Shown here piece by piece: positions 13,396 through 55,914 of a stretch of DNA of 64,000 nt. Each line of letters begins with the position of its first letter. The first letter of the stretch is position 1. The notes under the pieces were generated by a model, which was given only the letters and a program-made list of their open reading frames with translations, did not search any database and had not been told where the DNA came from. A program made the translations under genes and the position numbers. This DNA is from Rapana venosa (lineage: Eukaryota; Mollusca; Gastropoda; Neogastropoda; Muricidae). The stretch spans positions 20,044,412-20,108,411 of the forward strand of contig CM054167.1 of assembly GCA_028751875.1 (NCBI GenBank). The letters run 5' to 3'.

Positions 13396-13493
13396 TCAGG
13401 CCTGTTTGTTGCCCTTGCGCAGCAGCTTCTGCAGACCTCGGGTCATGTAGTAGGGTTTGTCAGGACTGCCGTCATTACGCTCCAGGTCCTCCA
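13396..13493 (-). CDS. SLC44A (CTL2-like): SLC44A exon W22 (last exon, with stop)
   Basis: Codes [20 protein letters not shown] then [12 protein letters not shown] and TGA at 13396-13398. LEDLERNDG is the family's C-terminal signature, followed by a short basic cytoplasmic tail. Acceptor TGCCAACAG|TG. Confidence 0.98.
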
Positions 13494-16400
13494 CTGTTGG
13501 CATGCACGCACGCACACACAGCGCTGTGAGAGCCGTCTAATATCACTTAAAAGTGGAAAGACGTTAAAGCGAAGAACATACACATAAGACACAGAGCATA
13601 CCACACCATTCTCTAGTCTGGGCGAATTCATTGGTTAGAAGGTATAGTGCCTGGTCTTCTCCTCCTGCGCTTGTAACTCTGCAGGAGGTCCGTTCGCTGG
13701 CCTCAGCCCACACTTTCCAACTTCAGGGCGACTCATTAATTAAGGAGTTCATAAGAAGAAGAAGAAGAAAAAAAAAAGATGTGCTTGAAAAAAGGGCAGA
13801 AAATGGGGTGGGCAGGCAGGGGGGGAAAAAAAGGCAAAAGAGAGAGTGGGGGGATAGGGAAAAGGCAGAAACAAAGGGAGTGATAGAAAAGGGAACATTT
13901 CTACCACAGAATTTCCAGAAAGTGGGGATGCTGTTTATATGGAAAAAGCCCCAGGGCGGGGAGACTCTGGTCTAGGACTGTAGGGAAAGCGTTGCATTGT
14001 TTTCCACTTCCAGTCCTGGGGATAGCGTGTTGCCACCACAGCAATGCCACCCCCTTTTTCTGTCTATTTTTTTCTGTCTGCAAGTGTGTTTGTTTCCCTA
14101 CCAGAGTGGCCTTTTCCCAGGGGCAGCTTCCTTGTTGCTGTCAGTTATTTTACATACAAGCAAAAAAGGATTACAAACAAAGTGAACTGCAGAACAAAAA
14201 ACAACAACAACAGAAATTTGTCCATAAAATATTGTGAATGCAGCATAAATGAGAGATGTTTGGTGTAAGAAATTGTATCGCCAAAAAAGCGTAAAATTTA
14301 GCAAAATGTAACAAATGATTTTTGTTTGGGGGGGGAAAAAGCTTATTTTTTAACACTGCTATTTAGGTAGAGGTTTTGGAATGAAAAAATGAAAGTTAGA
14401 AACTTACTCAGCTTTAAAAGAGAGTAGTTTTTAAGCAGTACCAATATATTATAAAGGTTTTGATAGAGGGAACAGAATTTTTCATCACTTACGAATTAAT
14501 CAACTTTTCAAAATACATACCAAGTGACATCGATTGAAGAAGGCATAAAGAAATAAAAAGCTTGTCATGAGTTTATGGCACAGACATGCTGAAATGAGAT
14601 GATGAAAAAAAACTTATCTTACATAGTGAACTAAAAGAGAACTAGAAGACACTTGTTCATACTCACAGAAACAGAGGAAGAGGGTATCAACCGCCATGTC
14701 GTACACGTTAAAGAAACAGCTGGTCACCAGGTATGTCCCCAAAATTAGAATCTGTTAGGGATGAACATTATCATTATTATTGTCATCATCACTATCGTCA
14801 TTAACATTATCATCATTAGTAGTAGTATTATCATCATTATTATAATTACTGCTTCTACTATTATCATTACCATCATCATCATTCTTATCATCATCATTAC
14901 TATTATAATCATATTACTGTGATCATTATTACCAAAATGAAGTCAGCATCATCAATGTCATTATGAAGCTATTACTATTACCATATTGTCAAAGTTGGCT
15001 AGTGTCACAGGCAATATTGAAAATATCACAAAATGCCAACAAACAAAAAAAACAAAATGCACAGAACAGAAGAAAAAAATCAACACAAAAAAATTCCCAA
15101 ATAATAATAACTAAAAATAATGACACATTTAAGACAAAAAAAAGAGACTGGCCAAAATAGCCAATTCAATAGCAACAACATCGAAACAACAACAACAGAA
15201 AAGTTTCAATATTGAATCTTCATTTCTAACATATTGACAGAACCTTATCCTTACTGTGACAAGCACCAAGACAGAAGTTCAATAAATCAGTTACATTTCA
15301 CAAACAACACTTACACACACACGCACACACACACACACACACACAGATAACACAGAAGAGCTATAAAGTAATACACAGCACAACAGACGTACAATGATGG
15401 ATACGAACCATACAGACATGAATAAAGCGAAAACATTACACAACAATCACAGATACGAGCAATACAGAATCAATGACAACCAGAACTGATCTTTACACTC
15501 ACAGATATGCTACAGAAAAGTAGCAAAACCAAAAATAAGACAATATGCATACAGTCACAGCCACCAAACAGAAGTGCAATACTGCAGTTCCATTGATATT
15601 TGTTGTTGTTGTGCGTTCCCCAGCTTTACACCCTGGGGGTCACCCAGAACATGCACTCTGCCTCACTCATCCCACCTGGGAATCTCTGTGAGATAGGAAG
15701 TACACACCGGATGAGAAGTTTGCGTGTATGACTCTTTTTCAAGCACCTCGCCATATAGGCAGCCATACTCCGACTTCAATGTGTGGGCTGAGGCCAGCAG
15801 GCAGACCCCCTGCAGAGTTACAAGCACAGGAGGAGAAGACCAGGCGCTACACACCCCACCCAGTAAGGGAATACAGAGAGAGAAAGAGAAAGAGATTTAA
15901 ACAACAACAGTGCAGACGTACAGAAACAGGCACCATACAAAAGTGTAATAAATCTTTTATATACATACATACACACAAATGCACAAACTAACAACAGAGC
16001 AGACTTGCAATGACAAGGGCCATAATTATATAAAAGCGCGCTAGATCTTTACAGCAAAGAACAAACAGACAAACAAACGGACAGACAAAACCAACAACAG
16101 AGCAGACTCGCAATGACAAGGGCCATAATTATATAAAAGCGCGCTAGATCTTATACGCAAAGAACAAACGGATGGACAGACAAAACCAACAACAGAGCAG
16201 ACTTGCAATGACATGGGGCCATATGTAAAGGTAAAGGAGTCCCATAACCTATAAGGTCGTAGGGGAGCGAGGCGTCAGAGACCTCACTTCTCTAGGGCCA
16301 GCATATTGAGGGCGGCGCCCATCTCCTCTCCCTCGCTGCTTTACCTTCCCTGACCCTAAAGAGGGCAGGTACCCATTTACAGCTGGGGGAACTGTACTGA

Positions 16401-17295
16401 AGCCAAGGCGCACAAACGGTCACCCATCCAACTGGTAACCACGCTCGACGCTGCTTAACTTGGCTGGGGGAAAGCGAGTGCTCCGACCACTGAGCTATCC
16501 CGGCCCCTATATATAAGAGCCATATATAAGAGCGCTAAATCTTGACAGCAAAGAACAAACGGATGGACAGACACCCCCCCCCCCCCCCCCCCCCCCAGAC
16601 TTACAATGACAGGCACCAAACGGAAGTGGAGGTCAGGGATGTAGTCTTCCAGCACCGGAATGCGTCGCTCAAACCAGTAGTAGGACGCCACCGCTGTTGT
16701 CACATAGCACACGCTGCTCTCTGCTTGCTTGCTTGTTACTGTTTTCTTCTCTGACTCTCTGTGTCTGTGTGTGTGTAGGTGTGTGTGTGTCTGTGTGTGT
16801 GTGTGTGTGTCTGGGTTGGGTGGGTGTGTGTTGTGGTGTGTCTGTGTGTGTGTGTGTCTGTGTCTCTGTCTGTGTGTGTAGGTGTGTTTTGTGTGTAGGT
16901 CTGTGTGTGTGTAGGTGTGTGTGTATGCGTGTGTATGTGATGTTGTTGTGTGTGGGGAGAGGGTGTGAGTGTGTGTGTGTCTGTGTGTGTGGTGTGTATG
17001 TTGATGTTTTTTGTGTGTGGGGAGAGAGAGTGTGAGTGTGTGTGCCTATGTCTGTGTGTGTGTCTGGTGTGTGTGTGCGTGTGTATGTTGATGTTGTTGT
17101 GTGTGTGGGGAGAGAGAGTGTGAGTGAGTGTGTGGTGTTTTGTGTGTGTTTTGTGTGTGTGGCGCGTGTATGTTGATGTTGTGTGGGGAGAGAGAAATGG
17201 GGTGTGTCTGTGTGTGTGTGTGCGTGTGTATGTTGATTGTTGTTGTGTGTGGGGAGAGTGAGTGTGTGTGTGTCTGTCTGGTGTGTGTGTCTGTC

Positions 17296-17326
<31 letters not shown>

Positions 17327-18008
17327 CTGTGTGTGTGTGTTTCTGTGTGTGTGCGTGTGTATGTTGATGTTGTTGTGTGTGGGGGGAGAGAGTGTGAGTG
17401 TGTGTGCCTGTGTCTGTGTGTGTGTGTCTGTGTGTGTGTTTTGTTGATGTTGTTGTGTTGGGGAGAGAGAGTGTGAGTGTGTGTGTCTGTGTGTGTGTGT
17501 GCGTGGTATGTTGATGTTGTTGTTGTGTGTGGGGAGAGAGAGTGTGAGTGGTGGGGTGTGTCTGTGTGTGTGTGTGCGCGTGTGTATGTTGATGTTTGTG
17601 TGGGGAGAGAGAGTGTGAGTGTGTGTGTGTGGGCTTCAATTTTACGTCTGTTCACTTAAAGTGATATTTACGTCTGTTCACTTAAAGTGTGTGTGTGTGC
17701 GTGTGTATGTTGATGTTGTTGTGTGTGGGGAGAGAGAGTGTGTGTGTGTCTCTGTGTGTGTGTGTGTGTGTCTGTGTGTGTGTGTGTGTGTGTGTGCGTG
17801 TGTATGTTGATGTTGGTGTGTGGGGAGAGAGAGTGTGTGTGTGTCTGTGTGTGTGTGCGTGTGTTATGTTGATGTTGTTGTTGTGTGTGGGGAGAGAGAG
17901 AGAGAGTGTGTGTGTGTGTGTGTCTGTGTGTGCGTGTGTATGTTGATGTTGTTGTTGTGTGTGGGGAGAGAGAGTGTGTGGTTGCTGTTGATGTGTGTGG
18001 GGAGAGAG

Positions 18009-18044
<36 letters not shown>

Positions 18045-19103
18045 GCTGCTGTTGTTGTTGTGTGGGGAGAGAGAGAGAGACAGTGTGTGTGGTGTGTGTG
18101 TGTGTGTGTGTGTGCGTGCATGCATGCATGCATTTGTGTGTGTGCATGTGTGTGTGTATGTGTGTGTGCAGGTGAAGGTCAGGTTGTCAATGTTTGCGGT
18201 TTCAATTGATTTGAAGACTAAAAGCTTTCTGTTACCTTGTAATTAAGTACTGGGGAGTCATTTTGTTTTCTTCTGCTTTGAAAATTCCTTTTAAAAACAC
18301 CCCCAGCCCTCATCATGACCACCACCTATTACCACGCAAAATTGTGTCAGTTTGTTGCTTCCTAGAGTTTAGCATTTCACTTTGTAATAACTTTTCACAG
18401 GATTGCCCGATTTTGAATCTTGGTTGGGTTTTGGGGGTTTAAAAAAAAAAAAAATTATTGAATAGTTTTTATTGTAGATTAAGAACATGTTACCGATTAA
18501 AAATTGATCTCCAGTGCAAAGTGACCTGTTCATTGTCACTCAGTAGTTCAGTAATGCAAAATTCTTTTTATCAATCAGTGTGTATAGATACGTTGACGTT
18601 CCTGTCCCCAAACACTACCAACTTCCCCTCCTTTTTTTTTCTCTTTTCAGTCTAATATCAAAATTTGTGAAGAGACAAATGAATTTGAACATATACTCCT
18701 CCCCCCCCCCTACCTCCCTCAGACACAGATACGCACGCGCGCACACACACACACTATCATACACAAACACACACACACACCACACACACAATCTCATACA
18801 CACACACACACACACCACTCTCACACACAAACACACACACACCACTCTCACACACAAACACACGCACACCACACTCTCATACACAAACACACACATACAC
18901 ACCACACACACTCTCATATCATACACAAACACACACTCATACACAAACACACACAGAGCCCCTGAGTGGATCGGTAGTCTAGAGGTAACGCGCCTGTCTA
19001 GAAAGCGAAAAGTCCGGGTCGGAAGTGTGCGGTGGTTCGTATCCCGTCTGGGCCCGAAACTTTTCCCCCATCCATTAGACCATGAATGGTGGTCTGGGTG
19101 CTA

Positions 19104-19134
<31 letters not shown>

Positions 19135-22100
19135 CGTGTGTTACAGAAAATTATGCAGCGCACGTAAAAGAACTCACGGCACCAAGAGAGTTGTCCCTGG
19201 CAAAATTCTTAGAAAAAAGCCACTCTGATAGGGAAAGAAAATACAGTTGCAGACCAAAAAAAAAAAGAAAGAAGGGTGGCGCTGCTCTTGTGGCGACGTG
19301 CTCTCCCCGGGGAGAGCAGCCCGAATTTCACGCAGAGAAAGCTTGTGACTTAAAGTGGTATAAATAAATAAATAACATCACAAAATGTGAATAGATGTTA
19401 AAGATATCTCTCTCACACACACACACTTACCCACAGCCCCTGTAACCATCAGTTTGCTCACAAACATGATGAAATCCGACACTTTGTCCAACACAAACGT
19501 CCTGGAAACATAGAACATATGTATACAAAAAATGTACACACTCACGCACAAAAACACATACACAAGCATGCTTACGGAGAATGGCTAGCCTTGTAGAGAT
19601 TCACAAGTGGAATATAGTTTGAATCATATTCCGGTGAAAAAAACATTTTTCCACACTAAAAAAAAATATCAAACAAACAAACAAAAACAACTGACCGCTT
19701 CCTTTTTATTTTATTTTTATTGTTCGTCAGCCAGGGCTCTGAAGCTCACCAATGGTGAGATTGTTTATTGGCGGCCATTTTCCGGCCATTAATGTAGCCA
19801 CAGTGCTGTCAGCGCCTGGGCTTTATCACAGTTCTTGATTAAACCATTGACGCTGGGGGCAACAGCAAAGTGAAAGGCTGTATGATCAGTGGCTTTCCCA
19901 TTCATGGAATTCCACTTTACAGCTTAGTCTTTAGTGATCGACTATGACTCTCTCACTAGGAGGCTTGACTCGCACAGTCCTTATGTGCTGCAGCCCTGGG
20001 GGCTGGTTGGCCTTTGGAGAACATCTCCAACACTGACTGTCCGTATGCCCACTTGGCCAAGAGAGTGGGGATGTACTTCGGGCAAGGCATCTCCACTCTA
20101 ATCAAATTTCTGCCCAGTTTCCAAAACAGCAGCTGCCTCCTCTGCTGTTTTGGAGGTCATGGTCAAACACGACAGACAAACGTACAATGCAGCCACATTC
20201 CAACTTCAGGGATGATGTCTAAACATGACACCAGTGTGCATGCATTTTAAAAAAAAGTTTTGTCTTCTGTCCACACTGGCACACATTGGCCAACTCTACC
20301 CAAAAGTAGAACAGGTTTTACCAGGTGCGCAAGTTGTTCTGCATGTATTTGTACACAGGACCTCAGTTTATCGTCTCACATTAATGACTTTTAGGGGAGT
20401 GGGGTCAGCACTGATGTTAACTCCAGGGGGGGAAAAAAAGGCTTTAAACGAGTGTCTCAATAGTGGCTCAAACCCGCACTGTCAGATCGTGAGCTCAACG
20501 CTATAACCGCTAGGCTATCCCGCTCCCCCTCTGATGGGACGGGATAGCTTAGTGGTCATAACATTGCGCTCGCAATCTGACGACCCGGTTTCGAATCCCG
20601 TTCAATGGGATTTTTCCTCTGGAGTTAACATCAGTGCCGACTCCACTCTCCCCAAAAGTCCTGTGGATGAGACTGTAAACCGAGGCCCCGTGTGCAAACA
20701 CAGGCAGAACATTTTGCACACACGTTAAATCCTGTTCCACTTTTTGAAAGAGTATGCCATTGTGTGCCGGTGGGAACAGATGACAAAATTTACAAAACTG
20801 CATACACACGAGGACTGGATGTAAAAAAAAGCACGAGTGCTTATTCCATTATCCTTGATATAAAAGAATGAATAAATAAATAAAATGGTTTGCATGTGTT
20901 TTTGTGTAGGTTGTTTTGTTGTGGGGGGGGGGGGGGGGGAGCTAGTTTTTGGCTGACATAACAAAATGTAGTTCAATCAAGACAGACCGCCAGTGGTAGA
21001 TCAACAACTTTCACTTTCACTATCGCATATCCCAAAATGCAATTTCAACAGGAGAGTCTTCAAGACAGGAAGTCCTTGGACGCTATTTTGAATTTTGTTG
21101 CAAGAGATTTGGTTCAGTGGTTTGGCTGCAGTTGAATTTTCAAAAAAAAAGGGGGGTTTTGGGGGTGGGGTTTTTTTATAACTTTTTGTGCGTGTGGGAA
21201 CATCAGTGCATGGTGAACCTTTACAACTTCTAGAATTTATTTTCAGACATAATATTGGCGGTCAGAGTGTTTTGGAGGTTTAAACTGGTGAAGACATTTT
21301 GAAGTGAGACAAGTCTGAAGTCGGTCGTGCCCTAGTTATGAGCAATGACCTAGTTGTGAACAATGATCCTCTGCTCGCTGACTTTGATCGTTTTCCCTCC
21401 TGTATCAGTTAATACATATGAAAAAAACCAATGACTGTTTTGGGTGTAGTGACGTCTTTGGAACTTTTTCTGCATTTTTGGCGAGGGAAAAAAAAAAAAA
21501 AAGAAGGAAATTTGTTATCGATGTATGTTTGTAGTGGGTATGTCTGTGTTGCAGATTTACTTCCCTTGACATGGTATTTTCATAATTGTACTCACGAGGT
21601 CTTATAAGGTCAGCAAACGGTTAAAATCATGTACCAGCTTTTCACTTTTTTTTCCCCCGCCATGGGACGTGGTACAGAACTTCTCAAAAACTGATGAGTG
21701 CCCTCTTGCCCTTTTTCAGCTAGAGCTTCGAGATTCCCAGATGGCGAGATTTGGTGTATGCGACTGGTTTTGCCCACCATTGAGGCATCCGCATTCCGAC
21801 TTCAGGGACGGTGCTCCCTTTCAGTCATGTAGCGGACAGTGCGTGCATGACGTCGACGACATTTTTCACACAACCCTTGTCTTTTCACTTTCCGAAAAGA
21901 TACGTTCTAAAATAAAGAAAACAATAAATCTCTCAAACTGAGCGCTCTCTTCCGCTTCATCTTTCTTACCTCAGCACATTGCGCATAATCAGCAGGAAAG
22001 CGTCTTTGGTAGCCGCACAGAAACTGCGTCCGTATATTGCAATCTGCAACACAGTTAGTTAGTTACAGAAACACGGACCGCCAAAGAGAAGACTATACAC

Positions 22101-22732
22101 TCGATACAAGATAAAAAAAAAAACCAATGCTCTTGTCCACAAGCTGGCGAGCAGTTTTGCCTGCATGCGACCAATGCAGACTAGCACAGCTTGAAGATCA
22201 AACGGCGCTCAGTCAAGAGAGCTAAATTCAGCGCGCCCCTTCCTTGTACTAAAACCGCGTACACACGGGGACTGGATGTAAAAAAGCACATGAGTGCTTA
22301 TTCCATTATCCTCGATATATAAAAAAAAAAGTCATCTGAGCGCTTTGATTTGTCGCTTTACAAGATTCAGCGCTATATAAATTCCATACATTATTATTAT
22401 TACTAAGTCAAAGTGCGGTCAGTTCCTGCTATAGTTAGCGCCACCTGGGCTAGGATGGAATGGAGAGAAGCTGAGAGCGAAGCTGAAGGTGGGGAAAACT
22501 GACAGCTGCGGACTATGAGCTGAACCGAAATACTTCAATTCAAATGTCTGAAGAAACGCAAACGCAATTTTATTTCACGAGGGTAATAGATTAAGTAACA
22601 AGACTTTTTTTCATCCAGCCCTCAAAATGAAAAGAAAAGAAAAAGCTGCAAGAAAAACAAAAGCATAATTATGATACATATGAAAGTACACACACATTGA
22701 TATCAACAAATACACGAGAGAGAGAGACAGAG

Positions 22733-22766
<34 letters not shown>

Positions 22767-25700
22767 AGGCAGGCAGGCAGACAGATAGACAGACAGACAG
22801 AACAGAGGGACAGATAGACAGTCTGAGATAGAGACAGAGATAGCGAGACAGAGAGAGGAACAAGAAGTATGGAAAGCGGAAATAAGTGTTGTATTAATAC
22901 ATCTTGGGAAGGAGATATGTTGTATCACATTGTTTCATCAAAAGATCTTGATACATTGTTTTAAATTTTTTCAGATTAGTTTCATTATTTAGTTGGTAGG
23001 GAAGCCTATTCCACAGCCAGCCCCCAGAATATGCTAGACTTGATTTGAATAGTATTATCTTAGGTAGAGGTAGATTAATCAAATGAGTGTCTAAAATCAT
23101 TTACTGTGAAGATGCTTTGTAATAAAGATGGGGCATTTCCATGCAAGATCTTATGCATCAAAACTCCTTTATTGAAAAGAAGCTTGGACTTAAGGGGAAG
23201 AATATTAATATCTGAATGGTCAGCAACTGTTAAAGATGATGATTTATTTAGGATAAGCTTGAAAATGTAATGTATCTTTCTGCTGTTGATGATCCGGTAG
23301 TCATTTCTTTTACTTTGTGTAAACTTTTTTTGTGTTTTAAAAAAAAAAATTTTTTTAAATGTTCTTGCTTCCTTGAGTTAGAGCTGCAAGGTTCACCGAG
23401 GGTGAGATGTTGGGTAGGCACCCCTTTATCGCCACCACTAAGGTAGGTAAGGTAGGTAGCTAGCCACAGTCCAGCTTCTTTTGTGAAGTGAAGTCCTTCT
23501 TCAGTGTTCACAGTCCTCCTCACCCATTGCTCGCCTTCCTAACTATTCCCTCCATTCTCCCCATGCCATCAACATTTCTGTTTCCAGTCCCCTACCTCCC
23601 GGTTGATCCACACACACACACACACCGCAGCTCTAACACACACACACACAGGCTTCACACGTGTACGTAGTAGCTAGCGTTGCCACGTCCTCCGTACGCA
23701 AACACACACGTTTTATAATATATGCATTCCCGATTTATTATACATACCCACATATGCATGTGCATACACACACACATGTGTACATGTACATGCACACACA
23801 CACACAGAACATCTTGTGCACAGGTTAAATCCTGTTCTGCTTTTCGTAAGAGTAGGCCATTGTGTGCCGGTGGGAACAGATGACAATTTACAAAACCGCA
23901 AACACACGGGGACTGGATGTAAAAAAGCACATAAGTGCTTATTCCATTATCCTCGATATAAAAGAATAAAATAAAATAAAACAAATAAACAAACATTCAC
24001 AATACTTACACACACGAGAACACACACACTAAATACTGATACACACACACACACCATGATGTAGGCATTCTTGTTGATGAACTTGAGCAGTTTCTCCAGA
24101 CACCAGAAACAGCACTTCAGACATCTGAAATCATAGCAACAGCACTTAGTTTGCTTTTGTGTGTGTCTGTCTGTCTGTCTGTTAGTAACTTTAAGGATAG
24201 ACACGGGTATGAAAGGGGCCAAAATCATGTTTTTTTTAAGAATAAAAAATTGCTAGATGCAAATATGGAGAACTCTTTGCATTAATTTAAAGAATTTAGG
24301 TTGTAAAACATGTCTAAAGATACAGGTTTCTTGTACCTGTTATAGAGAAAAAGGCTTAGGAGTTTGAAACATCTAGTTTGTGCAGCCATTTGGAGTGTTT
24401 CCATGGCAACAGTGCATAAAAAATGAGTAATTTATAGATTTTTAGGCTTTACAAGTGATGCCCTTTCAATATATGGTACAATTTCTAACATGAGTTTGTG
24501 AACAAAATTCCATCAGTTTTGACCCCCGTGTCCCACCTTAACTATTTCTTTAGTACACATGTTCTTTTACTGTTCAATTTGATAACACGCGCATGCATGA
24601 ACATATTTGCCAATAAGTATGTATACATGTGCCTTTTTTTTTTTTTTTAAATAAAGAGCAAAATGTTACTGCTTTTCCAAAAGCAAGTGTTGATATTTTT
24701 CAACACCAGAGGAATAAACAACAACAACAACAAAACTTAAAAGAATATACCATGGCTCAACGCTCACCCCCTGTCAAGAGTCATGAAACCGTGTTGTGGA
24801 ATAAAATCGTTTCAAACACATACATGTATCACCACACGACTTACAACTACCTACTATCCCCTTCTTCTTCCTTCCTCTTCTCCCAGACCTGCACCCCTGT
24901 CCTGCCAACACACACACACGCACGTAAATGCACATATGCATGCACACACATGCATGCACGCGCGCACACATACATGCACACACACACACAGAGGCACGCA
25001 CATGTACGTACGCACATATGCATGCACACACATGCATGCGCGCACACATACATGCACACACACACACACACAGAGGCGCGCATATGTACGTACGCACATA
25101 TGCATGCACACACACAGGAAAGTACACAGGCATGCACACACACACATGTGCGCACGCATGCATCTTCCTTTTCTCTCAGAGGTCAGCCAGAGGATGAACT
25201 TTGCCACTTCACACACACACAACACACATACAACATACACACACACAACACACATACAACATACACACCCACACATACAACACACACACATCACACACAC
25301 GCAGCACACACACACACATCTTCCTTTTTCTCTCAGCCATCAGAAGACATACTTTAGGATGAACTTTGCCACTTTATTCTCCGAGCTCTTCAACTTGCGG
25401 TCCAGATACTCCAGGAAGGATCGAACCAACTGCACCAAGGCGATGATCAGGGAGCCAAACGCCAGAGACCCCATGTGGTACCTGACACACACACACACAC
25501 ATCGCTACAGTACAGTCCCAGTATTTTCAGATATATCACATGACATAAACAAACGTTTACACATCTTACAAAGCAAACTAAATGCCAACATTTCCATGTG
25601 GTACCTCACACATACACACACACACACACATCGCTACAGTACAGTCCCAGTATTTTCAGATATATCACATGACATAAACAAACGTTTACACGTCTTACAA

Positions 25701-28700: not shown

Positions 28701-29451
28701 CTATGTGGCCACTCCCCCCCCCCCCCCCCCCCACTTCCCTTTAAACATACACACATGCCTTCTTGTAGTCTGATATCACTACTTAGTGAAAGGATGTTAA
28801 ACTGAAGAGCATACACACACAACCTCATACAACACACACACACACTCACTAACACACACACACACCACACACAACACACACCACTAACACACTATACACA
28901 CACACACACTCTAACACAACCACACTAAACACACACACACTAACACACACCACTACACTACACACACACACTAACTAACACACACACACACACACACTAA
29001 CTCTACACACACTCACAACACACACACACTAACACACACTAACCAACACACACTCAACACACAACACACACTAACAACACACTACACTAACACACACTCA
29101 CACACACAACAAACCACTAACTACAACACACTAACACAACTCACACACACTCACACACTACACACACACACACTCTAACACACACTAACTCTACACACAC
29201 ACACACACACTAACGCACACACACACACTAACTCTAACACACACACACATACAAACCCAAGCAGCGACACACCTCAAAGACCTTCCCAGAGAGGAGAGGA
29301 CAGGGAGGGAGGGCATGTCCTTGTCCTTGTCGAAGGCCCAGTAGTAGGAGGCAAAGGCACCAGCCAGCGTCATCTGACCCAGCGCCACCACAAAGTTCAT
29401 CAGCCAGAAGAACATGAACAGCATGTACACCTGCATCGCCACCGTGAACCT

Positions 29452-29486
<35 letters not shown>

Positions 29487-30240
29487 GAAAACACACACAG
29501 AGAAACACACAACACACACACACACACACAGAAAACACACACACAGAGAATGCACAAGTGCGCGCACACATATACACACACATGCAGGCACACTCACACA
29601 CACACAGAGAAAACACACACACTCACACACACAGAGAAAACACACATGCACACGTGCGCGCACACGCACACACACACATGCAGGCGCACACACACACACA
29701 CAGAGAAAACACACATCACAGCACACAGCACACATGCAGGCACAGAGAGAGAGAGAGAGAAAACACACATGCACACATGCAGGCACACACACACACATAC
29801 ACAGAAAACACACATGCACACGTGCGCACACACACACATGCAGGCACACACACACACACACACACACACAGAAAACACACATGCACACGTGCCGCACACC
29901 ACACACACAGGCGCACACACACACAGAATGTACACGCACACACACACACACACACAGAAAACACACATGCACACATGCGCGCACACGCACACACACACAA
30001 GATTCAAGATTACATTAGCCTTTGATCCCTCTTGGGGCATGGAGACAGGTCTATGCATGTGCAAGGTACTCGTACTCTCAGAGTCATGGTCCTTTCAGAC
30101 TTAAATAATAATAATAATAATAATAAATGGAATTTATATTGCGCTGTATCTTGCACAGACAAATCAAAGCACTTGCACTCAACTCATTCTTACACAGTCA
30201 TACAACCAACAGCAAGTAAGAGTTCCAACAAGTCCAAATG

Positions 30241-30271
<31 letters not shown>

Positions 30272-36573: not shown

Positions 36574-36640
<67 letters not shown>

Positions 36641-42600: not shown

Positions 42601-45600
42601 TAGTTTTTGTCTTTTGGCCAATTTTGTTTGACATGTCAACAAGTGATATCTTTGGGATTTCAGGCACTCCAGTGTTATGGTTCTTTAAAAAAAATAATCT
42701 GTTGTACAAAAAGTGACATCAGATGGATTCAGCCAGCTTCAGGGAACTTTACTTTGGTGAAAAATCATCACATTGCTTCAAGGGGACTAGTTGATGAATA
42801 GTTCAAGCCATTTAAGATACCAGCCCTAATTTTCAAAACTTTTTATTTTTCAGCATTCAGCGACATATTTTGAAAATGTGTTTAAAAAAAATACAGTCAT
42901 CTATTAAAAAACTGTGAAACAGTCTCAAAAGAAGACATTATAAACTTTTCAATGATGTATAATGTGTATGTCATTATTATGTTGGGTAAGTCTGCTGAAT
43001 TTGTCAAATATAGCCAAAATCATGCGTCACCACAAAATGGTGGGATCCATTTCACTGCGACTCCAATGAGTTAACCTTTAGCCTGCCACGTTTGCTGTTC
43101 TGGAACGGCAGAGAAACTACGCCCCTCACGCTGCCATGAGCGCTGTTCTGCAACGTCGGTCACATGTCCCGACTTTGCGAAAGTACTTTCTTTGTATAGG
43201 TCATAAGTTTTTCTTAAATCATGATAAACCTTTTTTCTTTTTTTTCATCTACAGTGTTCATTCATTTTTCTTTTAAGAAAATATATACTTTAACCTAAGA
43301 TTAGTTCATAATTTAATTCACAAGATTTTTTTTTTTTTTTCAACAGTCACCCATTCTGGGGGAGGAAATTCCCTGGCAAATGGGGTTTTCCTATTCGCCC
43401 AAATCCTTCGCAGGCTAAGGGTTAGATATTAGTACATAAATGTAGGTGACCAACATGCTCTTATCTGTTGTTGGAAATAAGTGGCTGGATATGTACTGAA
43501 AGAGTTCGTGCTAAAACTCTGCATCTTGAACTGAATTGAACTGAAATGAATACTGCTTTCTCTGGGTGAAATCCAGACCGCTCTCCCTGGGGAGAACGTG
43601 TCACTACAAGAACAGCACCACTGTTCATTTGTTACAGAATGTCACAGTAAGTAATCTGGAGAGCAGTTTTCAATATACACCTGTCAGTATATATACCTGT
43701 CAAAGCAAAATTGTAGAGCTTTTGGCTTTGAGGACAGTTTAAATACATACCCAAAACTTCCAACATTTTTCAAACTGTTCAATAGTCACATTTCATATCA
43801 CTTTTGAGTGAACAGACATTAAATCAAACCAACAACATTTCCATACTAATAACCTTTCTTGAAAGCAGTCATGAATTCTTTTCAATGATATACAGCTGTC
43901 TTTAAAATAATGACGATGCAGTGTATCCCTAGTGCATATCGTTGAAACAATGTCATTTGGGCTGATTAAAAAAATATCGGAATGAGCCGAGTTTCATTCA
44001 ACACTTCCAGTTGTCATACTTGGCACCCTTCATGTAGCCTACCCTTGCTGCTGTTTTGTGAACTAGACTTGACACAAGGTAGTCACTGTGACTGTGTGAC
44101 ATGAGGACTAAACTCTCTGATATGACACAAGTGGGTCACTGTGACATGTGGACTAGACTCTCTGATGTGACACAAGTGGGTCACTGTGACATGTGAACTA
44201 GACTCTCTGATGTGACACAAGTGAGTCACTGTGACTGTGTGACATGAGGACTAAACTCTCTGACGTGACACAAGTGAGTCACTGTGACTGTGTGACATGA
44301 GGACTAAACTCTCTGATGTGACACAAGTAAGTCACTGTGTGACATGTGAATAAGACTGATGTGACACAAGAGTCACTGTGACTGTGTGACATGAGGACTA
44401 AACTCTCTGACGTGACACAAGTGAGTCACTGTGACTGTGTGACATGAGGACTAAACTCTCTGACGTGACACAAGTAAGTCACTGTGTGACATGTGAACAA
44501 GACTGATGTGACACAAGAGTCACTGTGACTGTGTGACATGAGGACTAGACTCTCTGATATGACACAAGTGAGTCACTGTGACTGTGTGACATGAGGACTA
44601 AACTCTGATATGACACAAGTGAGTCACTGTGACTGTGTGACATGAAGACTAAACTCTCTGATGACACAAGTGAGTCACTGTGACTGTGTGACATGTGGAC
44701 TAAACTCTCTGATGTGACACAAGTCAGTCACTGTGACTGTGTGACATGAGGACTAAACTCTCTGATGTGACACAAGTAAGTCACTGTGTGACATGTGAAC
44801 AAGACTGATGTGACATAAGAGTCACTGTGACTGTGTGACATGAGGACTAAACTCTCTGATGTGACACAAGTGGGTCACTGTGACATGTGATGTATGTAGG
44901 ACATAATAACTCTCTGACGTGACACAAGAACTGTCACTGTTGTTGACTAATTGTGAACATAGACTGTGATGTGACACAAGAGTCACTGTGACTGTGTGAC
45001 ATGAGGACTAAACTCTCTGACGTGACACAAGTGAGTCACTGTGACTGTGTGATATGAGGACTAAACTCTCTGACGTGACACAAGTAAGTCACTGTGTGAC
45101 ATGTGAACAAGACTGATGTGACACAAGAGTTACTGTGACTGTGTGACATGAGGACTAAACTCTCTGACGTGACACAAGTGAGTCACTGTGACTGTGTGAC
45201 ATGTGAACTAGGCTCTCTATTGTGACACACATGGGTCACTGTGTGACATGAGGACTAAACTCTCTGACGTGACACAAATGAGTCACTGTGTGACATGTGA
45301 ACAAGACTCTGATGTGACACAGGGTGGTCACTGTGGCTGTGTGACATGAGGAGGACTCACTGAAGACAAAGAGCCCGGCGAAGAGAATGAGGGTGAGCCA
45401 GACCATCACTCCCACCAGCCATCGCAGCAATACGATCCACAGCAGCGATATCAGCATGGCAATCAGCAGGCCCCTGTCACATCAACATCATCATCTATAG
45501 CAACAATAGCAACACCATCAACAATACAATCCACATCATCATCTATAGTAGCAACAACAACAACACCATCAACAACAATAACACAATCCACAGCAGCGAT

Positions 45601-47522
45601 ATCAGCATGGCAATCAGCAGGCCCCTGTAACAACAACATTATCATCTATAGCAACAACAACAACACCATCAACAACAATAACCCAATCCACAGCAGCGAT
45701 ATCAGCATGGCAATCAGCAGGCCCCTGTCACATCAACATCATCATCTATAGCAACAACAACAACAACACCATCAACAATACAATCCACATCATCATCTAT
45801 AGCAACAACAATAGCAACACCATCAACAATACAATCCACATCATCATCTATAGCAACAACAACCACAACACCATCAACAACAATAACCCAATCCACAGCA
45901 GCGATATCAGCGTGGCAATCAGCAGGCCCCTGTAACAACAACATTATCATCTATAGCAACAACAACAACAACAACACCATCAACAACAATAACACAACCC
46001 ACAGCAGCGATATCAGCATGGCAATCAGCAAGCCCCTGTCACATAACATTATCATCTATAGCAACAACAACATCATCAACAATACAATCCACAACAGCCA
46101 TATCATCATGGCTATCAACAAGCCCCTGACAGAACAACATCAACTGTAACATCAAAACCATCTATAGCAACAACAAAATCATTATCACCAACAGTAACAA
46201 CAACATACATTTACAGCATCAATATCACCACGATTAGCAGCAAGTTTCTTTCTCATCATCTTTAACATCAACAACAACTACAACACAATTAACAGCTGTT
46301 ATATCACTATGGCCCACAAGAGGCCTCTTGTCACATCAACAACAAAATATCACTTAAATATACAATAATAGTTTAGCTTCATCCCCTTTTGATATAGATG
46401 AAGCCGTTTTCATTTAGTTCTCTCTTTCTATTTATCGATTATCTGGAGATCTTTTGATCATTTTCATGTTTTTTTATGTGTGTTCTGGAAGGTAGTTGTG
46501 ATAAAATAGAATGTGTGCGTATGTATGTGTGTGCGTGTGTGTGCGTGCGTATGTGTGCTTCATGTTTTCACTCTTTGAAAATGCTATGCACCAACAGAAA
46601 GAAGAATAGCATACAAAACTAATCCCAGTCTAGTTTGATGTTTTAAAAATTTCTATGGGAAAAAAGCAGTCTTTGTAGGTAAAGCTGGTTTATCACTACC
46701 TGTGGAATTATCCTAATGCATTCATTTTATAGGGGACGAGATAACTCAGTGGTCAGGGCATTCACTTTCCCCCAGCCAATGTTAAGCAGCATCGAGTGTG
46801 GTTACCAATTGGATGGGTGACTTTGTGCACCTTGGCTTCAGTACAGTCCCCCAGTTCACCCATCTGTAGGGTACCTGCCCTCTTTAGGGTCAGGGAAGGC
46901 AAAGCAGCGAGGGAGAGGAGATGGCCGCTGCTTTCAATATGCTGGCCCCTTGGAGAAGTGAGGTCTCTGATGCCTCACTCCCCTACGACCACATAGGTTA
47001 TGGGACACCGTTACCCTTTACCTTATACATTTTATCACCACCACAAAGTCATGCACAATGAGACATAGTATATGAACGTGGATGGAAGCACAGTGATGGA
47101 CAAGTGGACTTACACCAAAATATGAGGCCAGGACTCGGAGAGATCATTGAAGACCACCTCAGCATACCCCTTCAGTTTGTAGAACTGGGCCAGATAGCTG
47201 TGTGAACACGATACATGTACGTACATAGTCAGCAGTTTTTCTCTTGTATTACATGAGTCTACATAGCAACAACAACAAAAATCTGCACACAAGAATGTGT
47301 GTGTATGTGTGTGCATGTGTGTGCGTATTGCACACACAATATAATACATAGGCTATGATTGATGTGTCATGTTTGGATTTTTTTGTTTTGCAAAGAAGAA
47401 GAAATCACTGACTTTAATTCACTTCTTATGTTTCCCTGTTTGTAACTGTGATGATAGTATATCAAAAGAGATAATCAGGTTTAAATATTCTCCTTTTTGT
47501 GATCATTCCGGCAAACAAATAA

Positions 47523-47560
<38 letters not shown>

Positions 47561-49851
47561 GTGCACAAACACACACACCCCTGCATTCCTACTTTTAATC
47601 AGCCCCCCCCGACTCCTAATTCTCTCTCTCTCTGTCATTATTTGTCTATTTTTTTTCTTCGGTTTTTTTTTTCCATCTGGTATCACTTTAAGTAGAAAGA
47701 CATGAAATTAAAGACTACTATACATGCACTTATGGGAATACATGAGCGCGTGCGCACGCACAAACACACACACAGAAGCATGAAGGATGCACACACTCAC
47801 ACACATACGCTCTCACACACACACACACATCCATGCACGCACATGAAATCGATCCCAAGCAGGCATCAAGCCAGAAGGCAAAACCATACTTGGTTCCATT
47901 CTCCAGCTTGGAGCCTGTGATTTTGTCCCCAAAGACGTTTTCAATGGTGTAGTTTCCTGCCGTCTTCAGCTCCTCTCCCAGACTGAAGATCTTGTTGAAC
48001 ACCGACGGTATGCACCGATTGATCACTGCAACACCAAAGCTTCCGGATGATCGTAAAGTCTACTACACATGATCTTCCAGATGTAGTGTGCGTGTGTGTG
48101 TGTGTGCGTTCGTGAGTGTGTATACATTTGAATTTGTAAAAACTATTAAATATAACATGATGCATGTGTGTAAGAGTAGGATGAATGCAAGCGCTTTGAT
48201 TTGTTTTTGCAAGATATAGCGCTATAGAAATTCCATTTATTATTATCATTATCTTCTTCTTCTTCATCGTCCAATGCTCAAACAGCAGCTATTGTTGTCT
48301 GTCATATGAGCGAAAATACGTCACGCTGCCGTTAAGCGCCTGACAAGTCAAGCCCAGCGCATCTGACTTTGGCATCGGAGAGAAATTGTTATCTTTTAGG
48401 TTTTTTCTGGAAAAAAGGGCAGGAGGATGGACCAAGAAGATAGAAAATAGACAAGAAAAAAGTGACAGGAAGTCATGGAACAAGGCAGAAGCAAAGAGAG
48501 AGATAGAAAAGGGGGAATTCCTAGCACAGAATTTCCAGAAGGTGGGGATGCCGTTTTATACTGACAGGGCCCTGGCACGCCCACAGGGGAGTGTTGGTGA
48601 TCTTAGGGCGGTAGTTGTAGTGGTGGAAGTGACAACAGTTCACATGCCTAGACCCATGGTGGGCTCGAGGTAACACGTCAATCAACAAAGCAAAAAGCTG
48701 ACCTTGTCAGGTGGCATCGGTGCTAGTCTTCAAGATGAGATCATACACTGCGATGAAGTGGTGGGGATGGCTTCTGTCCACACACACACACTGTACTGGT
48801 TTGCCTTCCACGTGATGTGACAAAGCACTTTAACTCTGACAGCAAGGGGAGAGGGCGCTGTGCTTATTCATCCAGCATCCAACATCCCTGAAGTTGGAAT
48901 GTGGCTACCTTCATGGTGGGCAAACATCGTTGCATACGCAAAAATCTCACCATGGATGAACCTCACGAGTTCCAGCTGAAGAACAAACAAAAACAACAAC
49001 AACAACACAACCAGCAGTATAGGACACACTCTCTTTTCACTAGAAATAACAGCAATATATCCGTGTCTGTTCTCTGCAATACTTATAATAAAAGGTAAAG
49101 GTGTCCCATAACCTATAAGGTCGTGGAGGAGTGAGGTGTCAGAGACTTCACTTCTCTAGGGGGCCAGCATATTGAGGGTGGCACCTATCTCCTCTCCCTC
49201 GCTGCTTTACCTTCCCTGACCCTAAAGAGGGCAGATACTCATTTACAGCTGGGTGAACTGGGGGACTGTACTGAAGCCAAGGTGCGCAAACGGTCACCCA
49301 TCCAAGTGGTAACCAAATACTGATACTAAAGTGTCATCAGTGATGCGTTGTTTTGTTGTTGTTGTTGGGGTGTGTTTTTTTTTGGGGGGTGTCTTTTTTC
49401 CTTTTTGTTTGTTTTATTCTTGGCTAGAACTCTCAAGGATCACCAATGGTCAGATTTTTGCATATGTGACCATTCGCCCCCCCCCTCCCCCCCCCCTCCC
49501 TCAATAAGGCAGCTGCATTCTGACTTCAGGGACAGGCTTCCGAATCGGAGAGTAGAAACTGACAACAAGGTCAGCCAGCACAAGTGACATAAGGCAAAAC
49601 AAAGCCAGCGATGAGCATGTTTACAGCCTCAGCATGTCACAGTCCAATCCAATCCACTCCAACCTTGTTGTTGTTTATTGAGAGCCTGGCTGACCACACA
49701 GGCCACATCGGGGCTGTCGCCTCGTAAAATTGTAACACCTCAGAATACAACTGTGCAGCAGCAGCAGCATCAGCAGCAGCATCAGCAGCAGCAGGATCAT
49801 CAGCAGCATCAGCAGCAGCAGCAGCAGCATCAGCAGCAGCATCAGCATCAG

Positions 49852-49905
<54 letters not shown>

Positions 49906-50936
49906 CTCACATCAGACAATAGGTCAAAAGACATTGTCAAGTAAAAGTATCATGTCTGTTGCCGTGCTGAAGAACTAGGTGATCACAAACTGTACCTGAC
50001 TTGGAGCTCACGTAGTACGCTGCGCACTGCTCCGTCTTGACCAGGTCTGTGATGGATTGCTGGGAATAGACGGATGTCTTTATAAGTGTGTAAAGGTGTG
50101 TGTGTGTGTAAAGGTGTGTGTGTGTGTGTGTGTGGTGATTTTTTTAAAATTTCTTTTATTTTGAGGATAATGGAATAAGCACTCATGTGCTTTTTTTTTT
50201 ACATCCAGTCCCCGTGTGTATGCAATTTTGTAAATTTTTGTTTTATTTTTATTTTATTTTTTTTTATATCGAGGATAATAGAATAAGCACTTATGTGCTT
50301 TTTTACATCCAGTCCCTGTGTGTATGCGGTTTTGTAAATGTTGTCATCTGTTCCCACCAGCACACAATGGCCTACTCTTACAAAAAGCAGAACAGGATTT
50401 ACCATGTACGCAAGATGTTCTGCGTGTGTTCGCACATGGGGCCTCGGTTTATAGTCTCATCCGAAGGACTTTTGGGGAGAGTGGAGTCAGCACTGATGTT
50501 AACTCCAGGGGAAAAAATCCCCTTGAACGGGAATCGAACCCAGGTTGTCAGATTGCGAGCGCAATGTCCTAACCACTAGGCTATCCCGTCCTGTATCACG
50601 GTGTCATTGCGTGTGCGTGTGCGTGTGTGTGTGTGTGTACTTTCTTTCTTTAATATTCACATTACATGATATTAGATGATATTATTATGTATGTGTGTGT
50701 CGTTGTATGTTGTGTTGTGTCGACTGTGTCGTATTGTGTGTGTGTGCAGGGTGGGGAGGAGTATTATATTCTCACTGACAGATAATTTGTTTCAGTCACA
50801 GGCACATGCATCCACTCACACACACTCTGTCTAACACCAGTGTGTGTGTTTGTGTGTGTCTGTGTGTGTGTGTAACTACTATACTTTCAATAAGAGATCA
50901 TTTGTTTCAAATAAACATACACAAACACACACACAT

Positions 50937-50986
<50 letters not shown>

Positions 50987-51932
50987 CGTGCTTGTCTTGA
51001 TTGATATGTTCATTATTAATAATATTCATTATGGATCAAATTACACATAACAGTAGTTTGGGGACACAATAGTCAGCTTCAGATGTTACTCATCCCTTTG
51101 TTTCGCAGCTATTACTTTTAAATTCACTGTGCTCTGATTCTCCCTCAAACCCCCAGTATTGGGGCCCTAGGCTGATGAATATTAAGTTTGCTCAGTGTTT
51201 TCTCTCTCTCACACTCACATACACGAACACACACAACACACACTCTCTCACTCCCTCACACACACACACACACAACACACTCTCTCGCTCCCTCACACAC
51301 ACACTTTTTCTCTCCCTCTCTCTTTCTCTCTCCTCTCACCACACACACACACACTCTCTCTCTCTCTCTCTCTCACACACACATTCTCCTTAAATGACCA
51401 AGTTGTTCTGGTTTTGTTCATTGACTAAAAAGAGAGATATAATCTTACAAATAGATGCTTAGTAATTGTAAAGTGACCTTCAATGTTAAGAGTCTGTAAA
51501 CATATTTTGATCAAGCTAAAGGAAGAAACGTATTTAAAATTACCTTTTTATGTACATAATTGATAATCTGTTTCACTGTGATATGTTCTACACAGGATTG
51601 TTACTGAAAATGTCAGACATTGTTTTCTTGCAAGTTATATTACATTATCACAAATGGCTTGGGGTGAATGAATGAGTTTATTCTGCTGCACTTTTGATGA
51701 CTAGCTTTCGGGTACAAAAAACTTAACGAGTCTCCTGTGATGAAAAGTATACTGTTCTTTTTCCCTGTTGTATTGTATTGTGGCCCAATGGCCAATGTAC
51801 ATTAAACAAGTTCCGAGTTCTCTCACACACACACACTCACACACACACACTCTCTCTCTCTCCTCACACACACACTCACACACACTCTCTCTCTCCACAC
51901 ACACATACACACACACTCTCTCTCTCTCTCAC

Positions 51933-51969
<37 letters not shown>

Positions 51970-54900
51970 TCACTCACACACACACTCACACACACACACA
52001 CACACACAGAGGACAGGCACCCGAATCAAAGCTGAGAACACAAGACTGATTGTTGCAACCCAAGAGGGTCGACAAAACTGCCCTTCCCACTCACTCACTT
52101 TGGAGTCCACAGGGTTGACGTTCATTTTGCAGACGAGTTTCTTCCTGGCCTGCTCTCTGTTGCCCGCGCCCTCCATCGCCTCACTCTCCAGGTACACAAA
52201 GTTCTCCTTAGGACACTCCGACACACACACCTGCAGACGATAACAACCATGATGATATGTTTGTCCGTCGTGTCCGACGATGACCTCCAAAACAGCAGAG
52301 GAGGCAGCTGCTGTTTTGGAAACTGGGCAGAAATTGGATTATAGTGGAGATGCCTTGCCCACAGCACATACCCACTCTCTCGGCCAAGTGGGCATAAGGA
52401 CAGTCAGCGTTGGAGATGCTCTCCAAAGGCCAACCAGCCCCCAGGACTACAGCACTAGCGAGTCAAGCCTCCTAGTCAGAGAGTCATAGTCGATCGCTAA
52501 AGACTAAGCTGTAAAGTGGAATTCCATGAGTGGGAAAGCCACTGGTCATACAGCCTCTCACCTTGCTGTTGCCCCCAGCGTCAATGGCTTAATCAAGAAC
52601 TGTGATAAAGCCCAGGCCCTGACGGCAGCCATAATGATATATGGAATTGGCATAGTGCTGAATCTTGTAAAGCAAACAAATCAAAGCGCTCGCATTCAAA
52701 ACCATTCACACGCATACAACCATTCACAAAAGATGAACAGATGTTAAATTTACACACTCACAAGCACACACACACACGCGCGCGCGCATGCACACACACA
52801 CACAACATCTTGCGCACACGTTAAAACCTGTTCCACTTTTCGGAAGAGTAGGTCATTGTGTGCCGGTGGGAACGGATGACAAAATTTACAAAACTGCATA
52901 CACATGGGAACTGGATGAAAAAAAAGCACATGAGTGCTTATTCCATTATCCTCGAAATAAAAAAAAAAAATAAAACACACACACACAGACACAAATGCTT
53001 AGGCAGGGTGACGGCAATGTCAGCTGAAAGTAGGAGCAGATAAGGGGGAGTAACTACAGGGGGAGATCATAAGCCTGAAGTAAGTGTGTCTTGAGGCTGG
53101 ATTTGAAAGTTATCAAATGTACACTTTGGGTGAAATGAGAGAGGGAGGTCATTCCAGGTGGACGGACCAGAAATGAGGATGAAGGTTCACCGACTCAATA
53201 GCTGCCATAAAAAAAAATGGATCGCATCTTTCATCTCTGACCAACTAATTGGTCACAGCTTAAAGATTTTGATTGACAAAATGTAAAAAAAAAAAAATAA
53301 ACAAATAAATAAAACAAATGACACATTACAAAGAACATGATAATAACAGTGATGATGACAAAGTAATATATGACAGTTCAGATCCATTTCAATGGCAGTG
53401 TAAGGAAATTCAAGTAGCAACACTCCCCTGTGGGGATACCGTCAGTATGAATAGCATCCCAACCTTCTGGAAATTCCGTGCTAGGCATTCCCTCTTTTCT
53501 ATCCCTCTCTTTGTTTCTGCCTTGTTCCTTTTCTTCCCGTCACCTCCTTTCTTGTCTAATTTTTCTGCCTCCTTGGTCCATTCTCTTGCCCTTTTTTTTT
53601 CTTTCTTCCAAAAGGCTTAAAAGATAACAATTCTCTCTTATGCCGGAGTCAGATGCACTGGGCCTCTCGTGTCAGGCGCCTAACGACAGTGCAACGCTTT
53701 TTCGCTCACAAGACAAGACTGACAACAACAGTTGCTGTCTGAGCGTTGGAAGAAGAAGTAGAAGCGCAGGATCCAGGCTGGCACACAGTGGTTAGTTAGG
53801 GTGTGTGATCTTGGATACAAGGACAAAGGGCCACGCAGTCCATTCTCACTGTCTGTCGGGCTGGAGGAGTCTTTCTCTCCATTTTTTTATATTTTTTCCC
53901 GTCTGTGCTCCGTGGTTAGAACATCAAAGGTGTTCACCAAGCTTCATCATTGAGAAAGACTGTACTGCTGTTTGCACACACCATGAAGGTTGCCACTTAC
54001 CAGCTTCAGGGGATAAAAAAATAATAATAAAGTCAAACCATTGACATCCGTGTGCTTGTGGTTTTATTGGGGTCCTCCGTTCCTACCAGTGTGGACGTGA
54101 ATGAGTTAATGACTTAAAGGTAAAAATCTCAGAAACTGGAGGTTATGGAAGAGGGGGAGGAGGATGATGAGCAGAAGGAGGAGGAGGGATCTGGTTGAAG
54201 GAGAAGGAAGAGGCGGAGAAGAAGGAGGAGTCAGAAAAGGGGTATAACTGAAGGAGATGGAAGAGGAGAAAAATAAGAGAAGAAGAAGAAGACAGAAAAG
54301 GGGTCTAACTAAAGGAGATGGAAGAGGAGGAGGAGGAGTCAGAAAAGGGGTCCAACTGAAGGAGATGGAAGAGGAGGATGAGGAGGAGGAGGAGGATGAG
54401 TAGTCAGAAAAGGGGTCTAACTGAAGGAGATGGAAGAGGAGGAGAAGAGGGAGGAGGAGTCAGAAAAGGGGTCTAACTGAAGGAGATGGAAGAGGATGAG
54501 GAGGATCAGAAGGAGGAGGAGGAGAAACTGGAAGGAGAAGGGGGGTCTAACTGAAGGAAAAGAAAGAGGAGGATGAGAAAGAGGATGAGGAGAAGGAGGA
54601 GAGAGAAAAATAGGGTCTAACTGAAGGAGATGGAAGAGGAGGAGGAGGAGAAGGAGGAGGAGAAAGAAAGGGGGTCTAACTGAAGGAGATGGAAGAGGAG
54701 GAGGATGAGAAGGGGGGAGGAGAAACTGGAGAAGGAAGAGGAGAAGGAAAGGGGTCTAACTGAAGGAAGAGGAGGATGAGAAGGAGGATGAGGAGAAGGA
54801 GGAGAGAGAAAATAGGGTCTAACTGAAGGAGATGGAAGAGGAGGAGGAGAAGGGAAAGAAGGAGGAGAGAGAAAAGGGGTCTAACTGAAGGAGAGAGAAG

Positions 54901-55866
54901 AGGAGGAAGATGAGGAGGAGAAAGGAGGAGGAGGCAGAAAAAGGGTCTAACTGAAGGAGAAGGAAGAAGAGGAGGAGGAGAAGGAGGAGGAGGAGGCAGA
55001 AAAGGGTCTGACTGAAGGAGAAGGAAGAAGAGGAGGAGAAGGAGGAGGAGGAGGCAGAAAAGGGTCTAACTGAAGGAGAAGGAAGAAGAGGAGGAGGAGG
55101 CAGAAAAGGGTCTAACTGAAGGAGAAGGAAGAAGAGGAGGAGAAGGAGGCAGAAATAGGGTCTGACTGAAGGAGAAGGAAGAAGAGGAGGAGAAAGAGGA
55201 GGAGGCAGAAATAGGGTCTAACTGAAGGAGAAGGAAGAAGAGGAGAAGGAGGAGGCAGAAAAAGGGTCTGACTGAAGGAGAAGGAAGAAGAGGAGGAGAA
55301 GGAGGAGAGGCAGAAAAAGGGTCTAACTGAAGGAGAAGGAAGAAGAGAGAGGAGGAGGAGGCAGAAAAGAGGGTCTGACTGAAGGAGAAGGAAGAAGAGG
55401 AGGAGGAGGAGGCAGAAATAGGGTCTGACTGAAGGAGAAGGAAGAAGAAGAGGAGGAGGAGGAGAGAGAGGAGGCAGAAAAAGGGTCTAACTGAAGGAGA
55501 AGGAAGAAGAGAGGAGGAGGAGGAGAGAGAGGAGGAGGAGAGAGAGGAGGCAGAAAAGGGGTCTAACTGAAGGAGAAGGAAGAAGAGGAGGAGGAGGAGG
55601 CAGAAAAATGGTCTGACTGAAGGAGAAGGAAGAAGGAGGAGGAGAAGGAGGAGGCAGAAAAGGGGTCTAACTGAAGGAGAAGGAACAGGAGGAGGAGGAG
55701 GAGAGGAGGAGGAGGAGAGAGAGGAGGGGTCTGACCTGAGGGGTAGGGCAGCCCAGCACTACACTGGGCCCCATCCTGGCACACTGCAGAAGGTCGAAGA
55801 AAAACAGGTACGGCTTGTCCCTGCCAACACATCAATATTTTCAAACCAGGGTTTTTTTTAAAAAAA

Positions 55867-55914
<48 letters not shown>

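What the first reader, a model, noticed from the sequence alone, without database searches (positions are those of the whole stretch)
15230..55742. Splice-site-seeded minisatellites: many intronic arrays of this gene are amplified copies of its own exon borders
Nine tandem arrays in one SLC44A gene begin at a splice junction, and the junction (donor, acceptor or a piece of exon) is inside the repeat unit. They are W3 donor, W8 donor, W8 acceptor, W12 donor, W13 donor, W13 acceptor, the W14 donor array, W16 acceptor and, in diverged form, W20 donor. Random intronic minisatellites should rarely start at the exact exon border. A process tied to splice junctions, or selection that tolerates or favours decoy sites, would be new. 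Inference: replication or repair slippage may initiate at junctions, or arrays elsewhere may be lost while those overlapping constrained borders are kept in register.
Basis: partly seen in the sequence, partly recalled or inferred. Interest (0 to 1): 0.9.

Follow-up and report, generated by a model that had tools for sequence, protein, structure and literature searches.

The report
Minisatellites grown from exon borders
In a choline-transporter gene that is likely from a sea snail, seven of the sixteen longer tandem-repeat arrays in the introns reach to within eight bases of an exon border or across it, and five of the sixteen carry copies of the exon's own sequence, likely because they began as small duplications across splice junctions, a phenomenon described before in lancelets but, in the papers we searched, not in molluscs.

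Summary
The observation largely holds. The gene is a 22-exon SLC44 gene on the minus strand, likely from a caenogastropod snail (best hit 87%, Babylonia areolata); 21 GT-AG introns, open frame. Of 16 intronic minisatellites, 7 reach within 8 nt of a splice junction or cross it (0.17 expected, P = 1.3e-10). Randomly placed seeds would overlap a junction in 0.83 arrays; five do (P = 8e-4). A Nucella lapillus paralogue has extra X8-border copies in its annotated protein. The kind is known: border-spanning repeats are the 'mirages' of amphioxus (PMC3087553, PMC3902484). New here are the phylum, the density in one gene and recurrence at one junction. Whether junctions attract duplications or only preserve them stayed untested: genome search was unanswered 12 times.

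The parts
13396..59382 (-). SLC44 (choline-transporter-like) gene, coding exons X1-X22; the exon with the start codon was not found
   Evidence: 22 exons, 2035 nt, 21 GT-AG introns, frame open to the stop; PF04515 E 7.5e-106; 87% identity to a Babylonia areolata choline transporter-like protein 2
45474..46335 (-). X8 acceptor array: about 100-nt unit with acceptor and 44 nt or more of exon 8 (TRF array 45481-46142); diverged copies out to 46335
44066..45352 (-). X8 donor array, 53-nt unit, edge 8 nt inside the intron; donor not recognisable in the unit
35493..36194 (-). X12 donor array, 30-nt unit beginning exactly at the donor; 18 of 20 copies keep GTAAGT
34146..34369 (-). X13 acceptor array, 36-nt unit with the acceptor AG and 9 nt of exon 13
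33429..34077 (-). X13 donor array, 42/57-nt units, edge 7 nt inside the intron
31595..32781 (-). X14 donor array, 37-nt unit, 33 copies; the unit holds 31 nt of exon 14 and its donor; many copies encode LCECVKYGGT or a near form
32740..32774 (-). exon 14 as modelled (35 nt; uncertain)
   Evidence: keeps the frame but lacks six residues of relatives
32826..32886 (-). possible original exon 14 copy, frame-broken in this assembly, behind a good acceptor; starts with codons for D-N as in relatives
   Evidence: homology read by eye
25487..26478 (-). X16 acceptor array, 127-nt unit with 11 nt of exon 16; four of seven copies show GAG where the true acceptor reads CAG
15250..16228 (-). diverged X20 donor array: three near copies with GC for GT, three farther exon-bearing copies with GT
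16230..16510 (+). interspersed repeat between X20 and its array (three copies in the window)
54196..55709 (-). X3 donor array, GA-rich 50-nt unit (three TRF pieces merged); weak evidence of a junction seed
37301..37320 (-). second copy of the X11 acceptor border about 58 nt upstream of the true one
25191..25209 (-). exact 19-nt copy of the end of exon 16 (positions -22 to -3) inside intron 16
40599..41377 (-). internal comparison: large 36-nt array 810 nt from a junction without notable similarity to any exon (best score 11)

Best explanation
These arrays are 'mirages', minisatellites whose units at five junctions carry the exon border itself, and each likely began as a short tandem duplication across a splice junction. 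The duplication then likely grew and shrank on the intron side by slippage and unequal exchange, while selection held the exon copy in place. The exon copy cannot be lost, so a collapsed array would keep an intact seed and could re-expand; that would explain why arrays accumulate at junctions and recur at the same junction in a related gene. Shown: position, unit content, two-copy and many-copy stages, and that most arrays have no age gradient. Inferred: the duplication step, the exchange process and the re-seeding.
For: Array edges at junctions: 7 of 16 within 8 nt or across, P = 1.3e-10. Exon sequence in units at five junctions against 0.83 expected for random seeds, P = 8e-4 (unit lengths and flags entered by hand). 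X8 acceptor units 110/115 identical across the border. Many X14 copies encode the conserved exon peptide. Graded stages: two copies (X11a), diverged (X20d), 33 copies (X14d). X8a copies become less like the exon with distance, rho -0.92, P = 0.003, n = 7, while X12d, X14d and X16a are flat, as expected for an old array and recently homogenised ones. Nucella lapillus paralogue P0003 has a 72-residue insert at the X8 acceptor holding one in-frame copy of the border with that species' own residues and a stretch that I read as a frame-shifted copy. Mirages of the same anatomy are published for amphioxus Adh3, TnC, globins and PGBD5 (passages).
Against: X8d and X13d arrays contain no recognisable junction. 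One large array (40599-41377) and several smaller ones are far from junctions. X3d may be ordinary GA-rich DNA. Exon-only matching is just 5 of 42 junctions against 1.9 expected (P = 0.04), since the short exon parts of X13a and X16a cannot reach significance that way. With whole-unit references X8a itself showed no significant gradient (rho -0.6, n = 4) and X13d ran the other way (rho 0.69, P = 0.04). One gene only; the Nucella evidence is a protein annotation of a paralogue; no reads to exclude assembly error.
Confidence: 0.78

Rival explanations
1. Random seeding plus clipping: duplications start anywhere, and those that happen to overlap an exon are tolerated only on the intron side, so array edges coincide with exon borders without any junction-tied process.
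For: Needs no new process; 9 of 16 arrays lie 23 nt or more from a junction.
Against: 0.83 junction-overlapping arrays expected, five seen, P = 8e-4. Exon share of the unit is skewed low rather than uniform (KS P = 0.02, n = 8, three values set to 0 by hand).
Confidence: 0.2
2. A mutation process tied to splice junctions (replication or transcription trouble at the exon-intron step, or slippage between donor-like motifs) starts duplications there.
For: Edges at 0, 5, 7, 7 and 8 nt, at donors and acceptors; low exon share of units; lancelet parallels.
Against: No shared breakpoint motif seen by eye at seven array far edges; 31 of 42 junctions are not above controls.
Confidence: 0.3
3. The copies act as decoy or redundant splice sites and are kept by selection.
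For: X8a (4 of 4), X13a (4 of 4), X14d (27 of 33) and X12d (18 of 20) copies keep the GT or AG signal.
Against: X16a shows GAG for CAG in four of seven copies (one shows AG only, two do not align there), the three nearest X20d copies have GC for GT (three farther keep GT), X8d and X13d lack the site. Use of X14 decoys would run into an in-frame stop.
Confidence: 0.05
4. Assembly artefact in repeat-rich DNA.
For: Exon 14 is frame-broken or truncated inside its array; no reads available.
Against: The other exons join in an open frame, 2035 nt in all; copies differ by substitutions and the X20 array carries an inserted repeat; an independent genome's annotation has X8 copies.
Confidence: 0.07

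Closest known systems
Amphioxus 'mirages' (Adh3, troponin C, globins BflGb6/BflGb9, PGBD5)
   Same: Minisatellite-like tandem duplications spanning exon-intron borders, at 5' and 3' borders, with splice signals in many copies and regular splicing suggested (passages of PMC3087553 and PMC3902484)
   Different: Different phylum (by protein similarity); here five clear junctions of one gene, up to ten counting weak and two-copy cases, up to 33 copies; no RNA evidence here; recurrence at the X8 acceptor in a paralogue of another snail
Intron gain by tandem duplication of AGGT-containing or intron-exon segments (Rogers model; ATP2A1; potato RdRp)
   Same: Tandem duplication of sequence containing splice signals (passages of PMC4974935)
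   Different: Here existing introns carry the copies; no new intron shown
Ordinary intronic minisatellites
   Same: Unit lengths of about 30-150 nt, similar copies
   Different: Seven of 16 here reach exon borders and five contain exon sequence

Membership tests
mirage (border-spanning minisatellite) | tandem repeat unit includes an exon-intron boundary with exon sequence | tested here: met
   five junctions: X8a, X13a, X14d, X16a, X20d
mirage (border-spanning minisatellite) | the same feature at the other four named arrays (X3d, X8d, X12d, X13d) | tested here: not met
   X8d and X13d fail the junction-core test; X12d starts at GT without exon; X3d only marginal
mirage (border-spanning minisatellite) | correct splicing despite the copies | not testable with these tools
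   no RNA; the coding frame across the modelled junctions is open
mirage (border-spanning minisatellite) | copy-number polymorphism or somatic instability | not testable with these tools
   one sequence, no reads
intron gain by tandem duplication | a novel intron absent from relatives | not tested
   no genomic DNA of relatives was fetched
SLC44 choline-transporter-like family | PF04515 domain and similarity to solved CTL structures | tested here: met
   E 7.5e-106; CTL1 chain 7wwb_A E 1.9e-62

The most novel reading that the evidence does not exclude
In neogastropods, splice junctions are permanent birthplaces of minisatellites: exon borders keep re-seeding arrays, copies of older generations lie farther out as a fossil series, and the arrays feed back into the exon, so that exon 14 of this gene has been shortened and rewritten to an array unit.
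Probability: 0.25. Interest if true: 0.8.

Novelty: new member of a known kind. Interest (0 to 1): 0.5.

Why it matters
It extends border-seeded minisatellites from lancelets to, most likely, molluscs, and gives one gene with many cases at different stages, so the questions 'do splice junctions attract tandem duplication?' and 'can such arrays rewrite an exon or make an intron?' become testable. It also warns annotators: array copies look like exons, and such copies appear in a Nucella protein model.

Tried and rejected

Conveyor-belt model (newest copies next to the exon) as a general rule: rejected. X8a shows a gradient with a border query (rho -0.92, n = 7) but not with whole units (rho -0.6, n = 4); X13a -0.8 (n = 4, P 0.2); X12d, X14d, X16a near 0; X8d 0.32; X13d 0.69. 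X20d has no outward decline over its border.

Rolling-circle copying of lariats or spliced RNA: rejected, because acceptor units contain unspliced intron-exon DNA.

Rfam: no match at gathering score in the window. Shared breakpoint motif at seven array far edges: none seen by eye. Amphioxus as source organism: rejected, the best hits are molluscan. Pairing of donors to U1 was counted and not used. Passages only were seen of the Conus intron paper, the abalone calmodulin paper and the C. elegans minisatellite paper; none of those passages reports border-spanning repeats. Searches for prior cases: of which only named molluscs. The original amphioxus Adh paper turned up in none of these listings and I did not ask for it by identifier; I know it only as cited.

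Full report
What the gene is. Motif hits placed an SLC44 gene on the minus strand. Exons were set by hand from open frames and checked by script: 22 exons, X1 59382-59309 to X22 13493-13396, 2035 nt, all 21 introns GT-AG, one frame open from X1 to the stop. Pfam gives PF04515, E 7.5e-106; the nearest solved structure is CTL1 (7wwb_A, E 1.9e-62). The closest of 2284 protein hits (120 listed; 7996 candidates scored) is a Babylonia areolata choline transporter-like protein 2, 87%, so the source is likely a caenogastropod snail, probably a neogastropod. The exon with the start codon was not found.

Where the arrays lie. TRF with period at least 20 and score at least 150 gives 21 arrays, 18 of them in introns, 16 after merging three X3 pieces. 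Distances to the nearest junction are 0, 0, 0, 5, 7, 7, 8, 23, 26 and then 141 or more; X14d and X13a overlap their exons. Seven within 8 nt against 0.17 expected by random placement inside each intron gives P = 1.3e-10. If exon 14 is the alternative copy at 32886-32826, it is six of 16, P = 1e-8. The three arrays outside the gene were not used.

What is in the units. Aligning each junction to its array: X8 acceptor 110/115 identical from -60 to +55; X14 donor 90/91 from -31 to +60; X16 acceptor 70/71 from -60 to +11; X13 acceptor 65/68 from -60 to +9; X12 donor 57/60 starting at +0; X13 donor starting at +7; X8 donor mostly from +8 (two of six alignments reach -11 with gaps); X3 donor in part from -7 but GA-rich. 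X20 donor copies are diverged and separated from the exon by a 281-bp interspersed repeat. As a scan of all 42 junctions, the 24-nt core was scored against its own intron, the 20 other introns and the reverse complement of its own: 11 of 42 beat all 21 controls (1.9 expected, P = 2e-6). They are X3d, X4d, X5d, X8a, X11a, X12d, X13a, X14d, X16a, X19d and X20d; X3d, X4d, X5d and X19d are weak. X8d and X13d are not among them. X11a is a two-copy case. With 45 nt of exon alone, 5 of 42 beat all controls (X8a, X14d, X16d, X20d and a marginal X6 acceptor, 14 against 12; 1.9 expected, P = 0.04).

The right null. Random seeds that overlap an exon would also end at the border, so I computed that separately: expected 0.83 of 16 arrays, five with exon sequence, P = 8e-4. 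The excess is real in this gene but rests on five arrays and on my assignment of them.

History of the arrays. X8 acceptor copies score 47, 47, 43, 45, 35, 16.5, 20.5 going away from the exon (rho -0.92, P = 0.003; control maximum 16), so the farthest are likely old. X12d, X14d and X16a are flat. In X14d, 22 matches to the codon's context were found, including the model exon (32770) and the possible original copy (32857): 21 have TGT, and only the far-edge copy at 31640 has TTT, the phenylalanine codon that five relatives' proteins imply. The model exon also lacks six residues of relatives, DNTTLG in several. This suggests that the array has rewritten the exon, but an assembly error in a 1.2-kb array, or another spliced copy, would look the same.

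Another snail. Nucella lapillus P0003 has 72 extra residues one residue after the X8 border. They begin with a copy of the border, GMLVAMVVLLLWIVLLRWLV, carrying Nucella's own residues, and include GPAGSHGG, which I read as the same border in another frame, before the true GLLVAMVVSLLW. The tree of 21 rows puts P0003 with Babylonia copy b (100/97) and the window with Babylonia copy a (87/92, below the starred level), so this is a paralogue. Among the 120 listed proteins, screened for inserts of 12 residues or more, no other has one at X8; annotation may remove such copies, so absence says little.

Splice signals in copies. Kept: X8a 4 of 4, X13a 4 of 4, X14d GTAAGT in 27 of 33, X12d GTAAGT in 18 of 20 but without the exon's CAG. 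Weakened: X16a GAG for CAG in four of seven copies (one AG only, two unaligned there); the three nearest X20d copies GC for GT, the three farther keep GT. No consistent direction, so I do not support selection for decoys.

Known work. Passages of PMC3087553 describe 'mirages' in amphioxus globins and Adh3, with length instability, regular splicing suggested and a proposal that they create introns; passages of PMC3902484 add TnC and PGBD5, where a repeat abuts a splice site. That is this phenomenon. I found no report in molluscs; the library leaves out most subscription journals.

Noticed in passing
32826-32886 and 31595-32781, minus strand: Exon 14 looks shortened (six residues of relatives missing) and carries an array-type codon; a frame-broken possible original copy sits just upstream.
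   Followed up: partly
38237-39685, minus strand: Reverse transcriptase open frame (RVT_1, E 1.8e-41) in intron 9, by its look a non-LTR element; the 36-nt array 40599-41377 lies in the upstream open frame 41427-39490.
   Followed up: partly
2490-3533, minus strand: Reverse transcriptase and endonuclease matches in one frame, both under Pfam's cut-offs (26 against 29.6, 20.5 against 24.5 bits), possibly joined retroelement pieces.
   Followed up: no
41775-42067 and 16 other matches within 10218-62589: An interspersed repeat of about 290 bp, whole or partial copies at 74-95% identity, unidentified.
   Followed up: partly
16230-16510, 46729-47015, 49094-49315: A second interspersed repeat, the other two copies at 86% and 89%; its look of a tRNA/5S-type short element is recalled, and Rfam gave no hit at gathering score.
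   Followed up: partly
P0053 (Capitella teleta) and P0104 (Dimorphilus gyrociliatus): Annelid choline transporter-like proteins with extra in-frame copies of the cysteine segment near exon 4-5, a coding-level repeat.
   Followed up: no
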